This document shows, piece by piece, positions 60,300 to 63,388 of a stretch of 64,000 bases of DNA. Where the stretch lies: the NCBI RefSeq assembly GCF_963378095.1, contig NZ_OY726397.1, forward strand, positions 3,472,001-3,536,000, given 5' to 3'. Every line of letters starts with the position of its first letter. Within the stretch, counting starts at the first letter, position 1. Under the pieces are notes generated by a model. The model saw only the letters and a program-made list of their open reading frames with translations, made no database searches and was not told the origin of the DNA. This stretch comes from Mycolicibacterium sp. MU0053. Its GTDB lineage: Bacteria; Actinomycetota; Actinomycetes; Mycobacteriales; Mycobacteriaceae. The translations under genes and the position numbers were made by a program.

Positions 60300-61481
60300 G
60301 TGACGCGGCGATTCGACATTGCGATCGCGGGCGGCGGGCCGGCTGGATCGGCGGCGGCGTGGCAAGCAGCACAGGCCGGCGCACGAGTGGTCGTGCTGGA
60401 CAAGGCCGAGTTCCCGCGTGACAAGCCGTGCGGTGACGGACTGACCGCGCGCGCGGTGAGCTACTTGCAGAAAATGGGCCTCGGTCGTGAGGTTGACCAG
60501 TTCCACCGGGTGAACCGGGTCACCGTCTTCAGTCCGAGCCGGTGGGAGCTGTCCTTCCCCAAGCGTCCCGGCATGCCCGATCACGGGCACACGGTCAGCC
60601 GCACCCAGCTGGACGCGCTGTTGCTCAAACACGCCGAGTCGGCCGGGGCGACCATCCGGCAGTCGGCGGAGGTCGCCCGCCCCGAGCTCGATGACGCGGG
60701 TCGGGTGGCCGGGGTGGCACTCAAGAACGGCGAGAAGGTCCTCGCCGACGCGGTGATCGCGGCCGACGGCGCCTACTCCCCCATCAAACGGGCGCTGAAC
60801 ATCGACTCGCAGTACCGGGGCTATTCGGCGATTGCGATCCGGGCCGAGATGCCGCTCGGCCGACCGGATTCCGACAGTCTCGACATCTATCTCAAGCTTC
60901 GGTTCGGAGACGATCAGCTGCCCGGCTACGGCTGGGTGTTCCCCATGGGCGAAGGTCGGTTCAACATCGGCCTGGGCTACGTCAACAGCTATCGAAACTG
61001 GCAGTCCATCAACGCAACTCAGTTTCTGGGCGAGTTCCTGCGCACGTTGCCGCCGGAGTGGGGGCTGCCCGACATCGCCGAACTGAAGAAGAACAAGAGT
61101 GTGCGCGCCTGGCGGTTGCCGATGGGCTTCACGACGTGGCCGCCGTGGCGGCCCGGGGTGCTGTTCGCCGGGGATGCCCTTGGTGCGGGCAAGCCCGCCT
61201 CCGGTGCCGGGATCTCCAAGGCGCTGGAATCCGGTTTGACCGCGGGCGAATGCGCGGTGGCCGCGTTGACCAACGGCGGCCCCGACGATTTCACCAACTA
61301 CGCCCAACGCATGGACGCGGCGTGGGGTTCGGAGTACCGGCGCGGGCGCCTCGTGCACCGACTGCTGGGCCACCCCGTCATCGCCGACGCCGGCCTGAAG
61401 GCGATCGACAATGCGTTCTTCCGTGACCGGTTGCTCAAGGCGCTCTACAAGAAGGCGCAGGGTCCGCAGCACAGCTACTGA
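60300..61481 (+). CDS. Geranylgeranyl reductase family FAD oxidoreductase
   Basis: 393 aa from GTG 60300. The N-terminal FAD motif is DIAIAGGGPAGSAAAWQAAQAGARVVVLDKAEFPRDKPCGDGLTARAV, then VSRTQLDALLLKHAESAGA, AVIAADGAYSPIKRAL, PGYGWVFPMGEGRFNIGLGY (substrate-region YGWVFP) and VLFAGDALGAGKPASGAGISKALESG. It resembles the menaquinone isoprenyl reductase MenJ and archaeal geranylgeranyl reductases, so it likely saturates an isoprenoid double bond. Whether it duplicates MenJ or has another lipid substrate is unknown. Confidence 0.87.
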   Translation: MTRRFDIAIAGGGPAGSAAAWQAAQAGARVVVLDKAEFPRDKPCGDGLTARAVSYLQKMGLGREVDQFHRVNRVTVFSPSRWELSFPKRPGMPDHGHTVSRTQLDALLLKHAESAGATIRQSAEVARPELDDAGRVAGVALKNGEKVLADAVIAADGAYSPIKRALNIDSQYRGYSAIAIRAEMPLGRPDSDSLDIYLKLRFGDDQLPGYGWVFPMGEGRFNIGLGYVNSYRNWQSINATQFLGEFLRTLPPEWGLPDIAELKKNKSVRAWRLPMGFTTWPPWRPGVLFAGDALGAGKPASGAGISKALESGLTAGECAVAALTNGGPDDFTNYAQRMDAAWGSEYRRGRLVHRLLGHPVIADAGLKAIDNAFFRDRLLKALYKKAQGPQHSY

Positions 61482-61765
61482 GGACGGGGTCTCGCGTTTT
61501 GACTCGGTGGGTGGCTGATCTCGAGGTAGCCGAGGATCGCTCCTGCTCACCGAAAGCTGTCGCGGCCGAATCCAGCTTCGCTCCGGTGTTCGACGTGCGG
61601 GCCGCCAACCGCCGCGCCATCGCGTCGACCGCAGCCTGCACCGCCGAAACCGCCGCCGAAGGGCTGATGCGCCGGGCCCACGCCGACCCGACCAACACCG
61701 CCAACCAAGTCCACCGCCGCCGCATCATGCTGCGTCGCCAACGACTGCAGGCCACCCAGCGGCAT
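61435..61765 (-). pseudogene. EspC-like (T7SS target, DUF2580) gene, frameshifted
   Basis: Two minus-strand frames join into one family-like protein of about 108 residues. The N-terminal frame has GLQSLATQHDAAAVDL (from ATG 61765), the C-terminal frame SAVQAAVDAMARRLAA then TGAKLDSAATAFGEQE. Dropping one T from CCCTTCG near 61658-61662 restores one frame (QPSAAAVSAV). EspC-type proteins are small helical ESX-secretion partners, often encoded beside polymorphic toxins. The 3' end runs into the convergent reductase gene, so the native stop seems lost. Confidence 0.55.
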
Positions 61766-61772
61766 AACAGTT

Positions 61773-62002
61773 GATGAGGCAACGACCGCAGTCAGCACCA
61801 CACTCCAACACCACCAGGCAGCGATTGATGCCTGGGTGGCGAATGGCGCTCCCGATCGGCTGAGGCTTTCGCTACCGTTCGATTGCGGGGAGGTACTTGT
61901 CCGAGGCGCCAACGCCCCTGTGCCTGGCACTGCCGTGCTCGTAGTACTGAAAGGACTCGGAATGGGCAATGGATCGTGTTGACGGGATACCCCACAAGAT
62001 GA
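61773..62002 (+). pseudogene. C-terminal fragment of an RNase A-like polymorphic toxin (CdiA-CT type), frameshifted
   Basis: The frame from 61773 reads QAAIDAWVANGAPDRLRLSL, GEVLVRGANAPVPGTAV, VVLKGLGMGN, then hits an early stop at 61980. One frame over, WIVLTGYPTR (61970-61999) completes the domain and stops at TGA 62000-62002. Inserting one T (AATGG to AATTGG near 61970) fuses them. The pattern fits the end of the bacterial RNase A-like toxin domain (typical ending LTAYP). The N-terminal half with the first catalytic His is missing, so it is dead. Its stop overlaps the immunity ATG by ATGA. Confidence 0.6.
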
Positions 62003-62340
62003 GTGACCTCCCAGTGCCGTATGACCTAGAGCAGTTTTTTGGTGCATATTTTCACCAGGATTGGCCTCTTGAAGCCGACGACTGGCACGGAATTGTCGCT
62101 CTCTACTCAGCTTCTTCTACACGCACTCCAGAGCACCTCCGGACACTCGCTGCGCACGTCGATGAGTTGCGGGCCAGCCGACTTGATGAGTCCGAACTGC
62201 ACGCCGTGATGATGAAAATGGGCGGCTTCTACGACCCTCGGCCTGAATCCACCTATAAAGACTGGTTGGGTACGGTCGCCGAGCAACTGCGCCTGCACGC
62301 GGCCGCAATCGAATCCGGCGACAAGCCCCCACCACCATGA
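61999..62340 (+). CDS. CdiI-like immunity protein, copy 1
   Basis: 113 aa from ATG 61999, which overlaps the toxin remnant's TGA; an upstream in-frame ATG (61969) lies inside the toxin frame. Family features: DLEQFFGAYFHQDWPLEADDW, LRTLAAHVDELRAS, GGFYDPRPESTYKDWLGTVAEQLRLH. This is the 'contact-dependent growth inhibition system immunity protein' (CdiI_2-like) family, which neutralises RNase A-like toxins in the cytoplasm. Codon usage is less GC-biased than its neighbours. It looks intact although the toxin is broken. Confidence 0.78.
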   Translation: MSDLPVPYDLEQFFGAYFHQDWPLEADDWHGIVALYSASSTRTPEHLRTLAAHVDELRASRLDESELHAVMMKMGGFYDPRPESTYKDWLGTVAEQLRLHAAAIESGDKPPPP

Positions 62341-62663
62341 ACGATGGCTCAGTTCCACACGCGATTCAGCAGTTCTTCGCTGCCTACTTCCACCAGGATT
62401 GGGATCTGGAAGCCGACGATTGGCAAGGAGTCGTCGACATCTACGTCAACGACGACCCCACCGCCGCACCCCTACGGACACTGGCCCAGGAAATTGACAA
62501 CCTACGCGAGACCCGTACCGAGCCTGAACTTGAGCAACTCCTGGCGCACACGATCGGCGCCTACCATAACCCCCGGCCCCTGCCCTTTACAGAATGGCTG
62601 GGGCAGGTCGCCCACCGGCTGCGCCTGCACGCCACCGCAATCGAGAATGGCACCGCGCTCTGA
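62337..62663 (+). CDS. CdiI-like immunity protein, copy 2
   Basis: 108 aa; ATGA overlap with copy 1 (62337-62340). A clear paralogue of copy 1: AIQQFFAAYFHQDWDLEADDW, APLRTLAQEIDNLRETR, NPRPLPFTEWLGQVAHRLRLHATAIENG. The two differ through the middle (about residues 30-75), the part expected to contact the toxin, which suggests different toxin specificities. No second toxin is visible next to it. Confidence 0.75.
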   Translation: MNDGSVPHAIQQFFAAYFHQDWDLEADDWQGVVDIYVNDDPTAAPLRTLAQEIDNLRETRTEPELEQLLAHTIGAYHNPRPLPFTEWLGQVAHRLRLHATAIENGTAL

Positions 62664-62784
62664 ACACCATGAGGGACACTCAACTTCGCCTGTTCCACCA
62701 GGAATGGGGTTTCGGGCCGACCCCACGCGGCGGTTAGGACACAGGGGCCTTCGCCAGCCCGATGCAGCACCGAATGGACTGATC

Positions 62785-62931
62785 ATGGACGCACGAATAC
62801 TTGACGATGCAATCGTCATGAGCACTAGAGATTCCGTCATTCCCGCAGTCGACCGCTGGAAGGTCATTACTGCGTACGGCCCCGAACACGGTTGCGCTAC
62901 CTCAATTGATGAACGCAACATTGCTCCGTAG
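62785..62931 (+). CDS. Hypothetical protein, 48 aa
   Basis: ATG 62785 opens 48 codons to TAG 62931 (MDARILDDAIVMSTRDSV..., DRWKVITAYGPEHGC...). Codons such as ATA, CTT, ACT and AGA are unlike the host genes. No ribosome site or recognised domain. It may be a fragment of another cargo gene. The rest of 62664-62950 holds a 22-codon frame with FHQEWGFG (62670-62738), possibly a stub of a third immunity copy, and nothing else I can recognise. Confidence 0.3.
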   Translation: MDARILDDAIVMSTRDSVIPAVDRWKVITAYGPEHGCATSIDERNIAP

Positions 62932-62958
62932 CGCCGCTGACCGGTAGCGGGTGCAACG

Positions 62959-62964
62959 TAAAGT
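62959..62964 (+). promoter_or_regulatory. -10 box of leaderless VOC gene
   Basis: TAAAGT, 7 nt before ATG 62972; argues against the in-frame GTG at 62951. Confidence 0.5.
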
Positions 62965-62971
62965 CGCGACT

Positions 62972-63388
62972 ATGGATCAACGCATCAGCCTGATCACGCT
63001 CGGCGTCGACAACCTCGCATGCAGCCGGGCTTTCTTCGAACAGGGCCTGGGCTGGACGGCCAGCGGCGAGTACGACGAGGTGGCGTTCTACCAACTGCCC
63101 GGCATCGCGCTCGCGCTGTTTGGTCGCGCCGATCTCGCCGCGGACACCGGGGTGGCGGTCGACGGCCGGTTCAGCGGTATCAGCATCGCGATCAACGAAC
63201 GCACCGAAGCCGACGTCGACGCCGTGATGGCCCGAGTGCAGGCCGCCGGAGCCACCGTCGTCAAACCGCCGCACAAGACCTATTGGGGTGGTTACTCCGG
63301 CTACTTCGCCGACCTCGACGGTCACGTCTGGGAAGTCGCCGTGAACCCGGCCTGGACCATCAATGCTGATGGCACCGTGACGATCTGA
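62972..63388 (+). CDS. VOC (glyoxalase/bleomycin-resistance) family protein
   Basis: 138 aa from ATG 62972. VOC fold: ISLITLGVDNLACSRAFFEQGLGWTAS, VAFYQLPGIALALFGR, VDAVMARVQAAGATVVKPPHKTYWGGYSGYFADLDGHVWEVAVNP. The C-terminal FADLDGHVWEV contains the usual metal-site Glu, and the first-strand ligand position is not a His, so metal catalysis is doubtful. Function unknown. Convergent with the LysR gene. Confidence 0.87.
   Translation: MDQRISLITLGVDNLACSRAFFEQGLGWTASGEYDEVAFYQLPGIALALFGRADLAADTGVAVDGRFSGISIAINERTEADVDAVMARVQAAGATVVKPPHKTYWGGYSGYFADLDGHVWEVAVNPAWTINADGTVTI

What the first reader, a model, noticed from the sequence alone, without database searches (positions are those of the whole stretch)
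61773..62340. Broken RNase A-like toxin end overlapping an intact CdiI-like immunity gene
A 70-80 residue fragment matching the end of RNase A-like CDI toxins is split by a single-base deletion near 61970. Restoring one T gives a continuous frame whose TGA overlaps the immunity ATG as ATGA, the normal toxin-immunity junction. The N-terminal catalytic part is missing. So a cognate pair stood here, the toxin was lost and the immunity kept, either as an orphan defence against kin or as a residue.
Basis: partly seen in the sequence, partly recalled or inferred. Interest (0 to 1): 0.75.

Follow-up and report, generated by a model that had tools for sequence, protein, structure and literature searches.

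The report
Toxin lost, two immunity genes kept
In this genome, inferred to be a mycobacterium's, an RNase A-like toxin gene survives only as broken pieces while two intact neighbouring immunity genes remain, which likely still protect the cell against such toxins from related bacteria: a new example of a known kind of arrangement.

Summary
A 65-residue piece of an RNase A-like toxin domain (PF18431, 28.4 bits, above cut-off) runs into a wrong frame; the last residues continue in another frame to a TGA that overlaps the immunity ATG as ATGA. The catalytic His and Arg are absent. The immunity gene is an intact CdiI_2 (69 bits); its model matches the CdiI of PDB 5E3E.

In Mycolicibacterium septicum the intact relative is EspC-like gene, 680-aa toxin, immunity, so this looks like an ESX (type VII) toxin operon, not CdiA. 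The 1.47-kb island is absent between the same flanking genes in two relatives.

In 248 genomes of the genus, 24 of 41 immunity genes lack a complete adjacent toxin domain, yet 23 of those 24 are open. Window left out, toxin domains are broken in 10 of 27 cases, immunity genes in 3 of 41 (p = 0.004).

Best reading: a decayed toxin locus kept as an orphan immunity islet, a known kind. Active protection is inferred, not shown.

The parts
61483..62955 (.). Island between the FAD-dependent reductase gene (60300-61481) and the glyoxalase-family gene (62969-63388)
   Evidence: Aligned blocks of the two flanks lie 11 bp apart in G012 and 98 bp apart in G019; G+C 61.5% against 68.4% for the window
61510..61759 (-). 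Broken EspC-like (ESX partner) gene remnant, in two frames, inverted relative to the toxin
   Evidence: tblastx to L079 (G012), 60% over 50 and 53% over 36 residues, joint E 1.1e-19; a minus-strand frame over part of it had no Pfam hit
61767..61982 (+). 5'-truncated RNase A-like toxin domain, first piece, ending at a stop in this frame
   Evidence: PF18431 28.4 bits, positions 34-97 of 113; tblastn
61961..62002 (+). Last residues of the toxin domain in another frame, ending in the TGA that overlaps the immunity start
   Evidence: Frame translation
61999..62340 (+). First immunity gene, CdiI_2, 113 aa, intact; likely cognate of the lost toxin
   Evidence: 69.1 bits; 5e3e_A by sequence and fold; nearest M. 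septicum
62337..62663 (+). Second immunity gene, CdiI_2, 108 aa, intact, of another clade, ATGA overlap with the first
   Evidence: 57.9 bits; tree
62669..62737 (+). Truncated start of a probable third immunity gene
   Evidence: 16-base repeat 94% identical to the second gene; motif in 1 of 20,000 shuffles

Best explanation
Between a FAD-dependent reductase gene and a glyoxalase-family gene lies the broken remnant of an RNase A-like toxin operon, of a type likely exported by the ESX (type VII) secretion system, together with two intact CdiI-type immunity genes that are predicted to bind and neutralise RNase A-like toxins delivered by related bacteria. Shown: the toxin C-terminal domain is 5'-truncated and split between two frames, and an EspC-like gene upstream is inverted and broken; the host genome has no other match to the toxin family at E <= 0.001; both immunity genes are open, in profile, linked by ATGA overlaps and of different clades; the island is absent at the same site in two relatives; intact operons exist elsewhere in the genus. 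Inferred: the locus came in as a toxin-immunity array, the toxin was then lost by deletion and rearrangement, and the immunity genes were kept because they still protect the cell against incoming cognate toxins (by contact with the active site, as the CdiI of 5E3E does). Untested: expression, binding and protection.
For: PF18431 and PF18593 hits; one toxin-family match and two immunity matches in the whole genome, all here. Intact cognate operon in M. septicum: EspC-like 92 aa, toxin 680 aa with the RNase domain at 571-678, immunity. EspC-like remnant on the minus strand, tblastx E 1.1e-19 against G012. Empty sites in G012 and G019. Genus: 24 of 41 CdiI_2 genes lack a complete toxin domain directly upstream, 23 of these 24 are open. 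Window left out, toxin domains broken 10 of 27 against immunity copies 3 of 41, Fisher p = 0.0038. Median dN/dS to the nearest relative 0.18 (broken toxin, n = 8) and 0.21 (no toxin, n = 10) against 0.135 (paired, n = 16), all far below 1. Model of the first immunity protein: pLDDT 90, best PDB match 5e3e_A, TM 0.67/0.75, Foldseek probability 1.00, E 7.7e-3.
Against: The toxin piece shows the same pairwise constraint (dN/dS 0.21 to M. septicum) as the first immunity gene (0.21), so the toxin was lost recently relative to that divergence, and constraint on the immunity gene after the loss is not shown in this genome. Orphans have slightly higher dN/dS than paired genes (Mann-Whitney p = 0.065), a hint of relaxation. 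No sigma-70-like promoter was found in 61440-63000 (other promoter types are not covered). The EspC and WXG100 hits in relatives are often below Pfam's cut-off, one of ten has none, and the minus-strand frame over part of the remnant itself has no Pfam hit. No PADLOC model matched the three proteins given.
Confidence: 0.62

Rival explanations
1. Plain residue: the toxin locus was inactivated recently and the two immunity genes are still open only because too little time has passed; they have no function now.
For: The toxin piece is 74% identical to M. septicum with dN/dS 0.21, no more decayed than the immunity gene. Orphan immunity genes in the genus have slightly higher dN/dS than paired ones, p = 0.065. 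A third immunity gene and the EspC-like gene are already broken. No promoter-like site found.
Against: Across the genus 23 of 24 immunity genes without a complete adjacent toxin domain are open, and toxin domains break more often than immunity genes, p = 0.0038. Two separate immunity genes are intact here while the other recognised coding pieces of the island are broken.
Confidence: 0.28
2. Silent cassette store: the fragment plus immunity genes serve as recombination stock for a full-length toxin gene elsewhere, as proposed for orphan CDI modules.
For: Broken toxin domains followed by open immunity genes recur in the genus: 10 outside the window. The orphan-module reshuffling model is in print for CDI (PMC3150448, passages read).
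Against: The fragment lacks its first third and its last residues are out of frame; the host genome holds no other match to the toxin family.
Confidence: 0.05
3. Assembly or sequencing error: the toxin is really intact and only the frame switch is an error.
For: The switch is small and I had no reads to check it.
Against: The first 33 profile positions are absent as sequence; upstream of about 61767 an inverted EspC-like remnant begins instead. A frame error alone could not produce that.
Confidence: 0.02

Closest known systems
Orphan cdiA-CT/cdiI modules of CDI and Rhs loci (PMC3150448, passages read)
   Same: A toxin C-terminal fragment without a start, followed at once by an intact immunity gene; the paper reports that functional orphan immunity protein is made in E. 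coli EC93.
   Different: There the modules often follow a cdiBAI cluster and can keep a complete, toxic domain; here no full-length toxin of the family is in the genome, the domain is truncated, and the parent operon looks ESX-like rather than two-partner.
CdiA-CT/CdiI of Yersinia kristensenii (PDB 5E3E; review PMC9086364, passages read)
   Same: Same toxin domain family (M. septicum domain against 5e3e_B, E 2.8e-9) and same immunity fold (sequence E 2.4e-4; Foldseek probability 1.00).
   Different: Delivery system differs; in the window two of the four active-site residues (His175, Arg186) have no counterpart and the other two (Thr276, Tyr278) sit in the out-of-frame tail.
Tandem T7SS immunity genes esaG, tsaI and tipC of Firmicutes (PMC9484751, abstract and outline read)
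   Same: Strings of non-identical immunity paralogues for type VII secreted toxins.
   Different: Other immunity families and Firmicute T7SS rather than ESX; here the string is short (two intact, one truncated).
Putative immunity islet of Salmonella Typhi (PMC7400221, abstract and outline read)
   Same: An islet made mostly of orphan immunity genes against toxins that the genome lacks, proposed as protection against competitors.
   Different: That islet has 14 genes of T6SS and CDI origin; this one is a single decayed ESX-type locus.
Prophage polymorphic toxin-immunity cassettes of Mycobacterium abscessus (PMC8092301, passages read)
   Same: Mycobacterial type VII polymorphic toxins with a small WXG-100 partner and an immunity gene.
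   Different: Those are prophage-borne; the word CdiI does not occur in that main text, and no phage record matched the first immunity protein here.

Membership tests
RNAse_A_bac toxin domain (PF18431) | Profile score above the curated cut-off | tested here: met
   28.4 bits against 27, E 3.1e-6, unmended frame
RNAse_A_bac toxin domain (PF18431) | Complete domain in one frame | tested here: not met
   Only profile positions 34-97 of 113; the last residues lie in another frame
RNAse_A_bac toxin domain (PF18431) | Active-site His, Arg, Thr, Tyr (175, 186, 276, 278 of the Y. kristensenii toxin) | tested here: not met
   His and Arg fall in the absent stretch; Thr and Tyr are only in the out-of-frame tail. 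Residue numbers from PMC9086364 (passage); mapped through the alignment with a constant offset, inferred
CdiI_2 immunity protein (PF18593) | Profile score above the curated cut-off | tested here: met
   69.1 and 57.9 bits against 26.7 for the two genes
CdiI_2 immunity protein (PF18593) | All-helical CdiI fold | tested here: met
   First gene only: model pLDDT 90, five helices; 5e3e_A TM 0.67/0.75, probability 1.00, E 7.7e-3
CdiI_2 immunity protein (PF18593) | Binds and neutralises a cognate RNase A-like toxin | not testable with these tools
   Needs protein work
Contact-dependent growth inhibition (CdiB/CdiA/CdiI) | Large two-partner-secreted CdiA with its secretion domain and repeats | tested here: not met
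   Intact relative in M. septicum is 680 aa with no Pfam hit at E <= 0.1 other than the RNase domain at 571-678
Contact-dependent growth inhibition (CdiB/CdiA/CdiI) | CdiB outer-membrane partner | not tested
   No CdiB search was run
ESX (type VII) polymorphic toxin locus | Small EspC- or WXG100-type partner gene beside the toxin | tested here: inconclusive
   Remnant here by tblastx, E 1.1e-19, to a G012 gene that scores 19.5 bits for EspC, under the cut-off of 23.5. M. septicum partner 23.1 bits, just under. In relatives 6 of 10 upstream small proteins hit EspC or WXG100 at E <= 0.001, 3 of 10 above cut-off, 3 weakly, 1 not
ESX (type VII) polymorphic toxin locus | Export by an ESX system | not testable with these tools
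   Needs secretion assays
Orphan immunity gene or islet | Intact immunity gene with no complete cognate toxin in the genome | tested here: met
   One toxin-family match (the fragment) and two immunity matches in 5.45 Mb, one contig, at E <= 0.001
Orphan immunity gene or islet | Expressed and protective | not testable with these tools
   Needs RNA and competition data

The most novel reading that the evidence does not exclude
Mycobacteria fight one another with ESX-delivered RNase A-like toxins, and species that have lost the weapon keep stacked immunity genes of several specificities as a bought-in shield: this island would be an ESX immunity islet under selection, with the first gene covering the M. 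septicum-type toxin and the second covering a different clade.
Probability: 0.4. Interest if true: 0.6.

Novelty: new member of a known kind. Interest (0 to 1): 0.36.

Why it matters
Orphan immunity genes are described for CDI, T6SS and Firmicute T7SS loci. In the listings of the six searches run (open-licence library only) I saw no paper on RNase A-like toxins with CdiI_2 immunity in mycobacteria. If the reading holds, the genus carries an RNase A-type toxin system with a recurrent outcome, toxin lost and immunity kept, which can be counted across species and used to ask whether mycobacteria compete by ESX-delivered toxins.

Tried and rejected
Prophage or plasmid origin: the first immunity protein has no match in 50,697 phage records and one 36% match in 72,556 plasmid records at E <= 1e-5; not supported. 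Recent tandem duplication of one immunity gene: rejected, the two are 47% identical and a supported set of 11 rows (97/85; bootstrap not fully settled) holds the first without the second. A coding gene on the + strand at 61499-61774: rejected, no family hit, and the minus strand carries the EspC-like homology. The 195-aa frame 62344-62931: rejected, no family hit, and its matches lie on immunity genes read in another frame. Terminal repeats at the island ends: none of 14 bases or more seen in 61440-63000; only the immunity-gene repeats and short matches. dN/dS as a test of retention in this genome: inconclusive. Anti-phage models: no PADLOC match. NCBIfam gave only sub-threshold hits for the window's proteins. 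Naming the exact species: not done.

Rows dropped before counts, and hand work: one immunity copy with a stop (G011, third) was left out, and 5 of 39 non-window rows had saturated dS and no ratio. For the Fisher test the complete and broken rows were sorted by hand from the table: G096's toxin pieces counted once, the weak G234 piece counted as broken, and the 41 immunity copies are 38 open ones, the one with a stop and two fragments. Related species are not independent, so p is indicative. The structure alignment used 45 sequences chosen by hand and the window.

Full report
Setting. The window is G000:C1:3472001-3536000 of a 5.45-Mb single-contig genome.

The observation. The + strand frame 61668-61982 carries a piece of the bacterial RNase A toxin domain: PF18431 positions 34-97 of 113, 28.4 bits against a cut-off of 27. 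Homology to toxins of relatives starts at about 61767. The last family residues lie in a different frame at 61961-61999 and end in a TGA at 62000-62002 which overlaps the immunity ATG. The pieces were searched apart. In the Y. kristensenii toxin the active site is His175, Arg186, Thr276, Tyr278 (PMC9086364, passages read). Through the alignment of the M. septicum domain with 5e3e_B, His and Arg fall in the stretch that is absent here, Thr and Tyr in the out-of-frame tail. The fragment is therefore predicted to be inactive whatever the cause of the frame switch.

What else is there. The first immunity gene, 61999-62340, is CdiI_2 at 69.1 bits. The next gene, 62337-62663, is CdiI_2 at 57.9 bits and again overlaps by ATGA. 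The two are 47% identical and belong to different parts of the immunity tree. After the second comes a truncated third start: an ATG at 62669 and a 16-base word at 62693-62708 that is 94% identical to the conserved-motif word of the second gene. The motif occurs in 1 of 20,000 dinucleotide shuffles of that stretch, and the 16-base word with at most one mismatch in 0 of 4,000. Upstream, the minus strand of 61510-61759 holds, in two frames, an EspC-like (ESX) partner gene: 60% identity over 50 residues and 53% over 36, joint E 1.1e-19, to a gene of G012 that lies beside that genome's toxin cluster. The host genome has four EspC-family matches at E <= 0.001, three above cut-off, none of them here, one match to the toxin family and two to CdiI_2, the last three all in this island.

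The site. In G012 and G019 the aligned blocks of the same two flanking genes lie 11 and 98 bp apart. Of 14 relatives whose reductase locus was fetched (2.8 to 4.0 kb each), none showed a match to the island next to it; only these two keep the glyoxalase gene there, and one locus ends at a contig end. The island, 61483-62955, has 61.5% G+C against 68.4% for the window; 3 of 313 windows of that size are as low, some of which may overlap the island itself. It is therefore likely an insertion.

The intact relative. In M. septicum (L147) an EspC-like gene of 92 aa (23.1 bits, just under the 23.5 cut-off), a 680-aa toxin with the RNase domain at 571-678 and an immunity gene follow one another, with the same ATGA junction. 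The window's toxin piece is 74% identical to that toxin; the first immunity gene is 67% identical over its length and 73% in its best segment. So the first immunity gene is the likely cognate of the lost toxin. The second is closest to immunity genes of G146, G214 and G090. The M. septicum toxin has no other Pfam hit. I looked at 15 loci with a full-length toxin. Small proteins just upstream of the toxin in 10 of them went to Pfam: 6 hit EspC or WXG100 at E <= 0.001, 3 of these above cut-off, 3 hit weakly, 1 not at all. Of the other five, L147 was scanned, L149 has a small upstream frame that was not scanned, and L080, L090 and L141 showed no EspC-like frame by eye.

Is the immunity kept by selection? 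In 248 genomes, one per species, 27 have CdiI_2 and 20 have the toxin family. Of 41 CdiI_2 genes (window included), 17 have a complete toxin domain directly upstream, 11 a broken one and 13 none; 23 of these last 24 are open. With the window left out and fragments counted, toxin domains are broken in 10 of 27 cases and immunity copies in 3 of 41, Fisher p = 0.0038. Orphans have median dN/dS to the nearest relative of 0.18 to 0.21 against 0.135 for paired genes, p = 0.065 for the difference. Both results favour retention. Against this, the window's toxin piece is as constrained as its immunity gene (dN/dS 0.21 each to M. septicum), so the toxin was lost recently and retention in this very genome is not shown. 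Genes close to the first immunity type (E <= 1e-25 and at least 58% identity) occur in 5 other genomes of the 396 searched.

Mechanism. The fold model of the first immunity protein matches the CdiI of 5E3E, which inactivates its toxin through contact with His175, Thr276 and Tyr278 (PMC9086364, passage). The likely function is the same block against incoming toxins. Steps shown: anatomy, family, absence of a complete toxin, empty sites, genus pattern. Steps inferred: ESX export of the parent toxin, order of loss, protection.

Known or new. Orphan toxin-immunity modules with expressed, working immunity (PMC3150448, passages), tandem T7SS immunity strings (PMC9484751, abstract), a proposed immunity islet (PMC7400221, abstract) and mycobacterial type VII toxin cassettes (PMC8092301, passages) are all in print. 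This is a new member of a known kind, in a setting for which I saw no paper in six searches.

Noticed in passing
L076 12300-12739 (G166): An orphan CdiI_2 gene sits directly behind the end of an EspC-like stretch, as if the toxin between them had been deleted; the same genome has four CdiI_2 genes and, in the fetched stretches, only broken toxin domains.
   Followed up: partly
L149 5306-7788 (Mycolicibacterium vaccae): A complete toxin domain is followed by a string of five immunity copies, one of them split between frames.
   Followed up: no
L078 6743-11671 (G096): Toxin-domain pieces lie in three places over 4.6 kb before one intact immunity gene.
   Followed up: no
window 61999-62340: The first immunity protein was not among the hits of the protein collection although the second one of the same genome is (P0022); perhaps a gene-calling miss.
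   Followed up: no
P0004/P0117, P0005/P0056, P0016/P0078: Proteins of the first and second immunity types share organism and contig length in M. celeriflavum, Mycobacterium sp. WMMD1722 and M. confluentis, so the two-type tandem may be older than this species.
   Followed up: no
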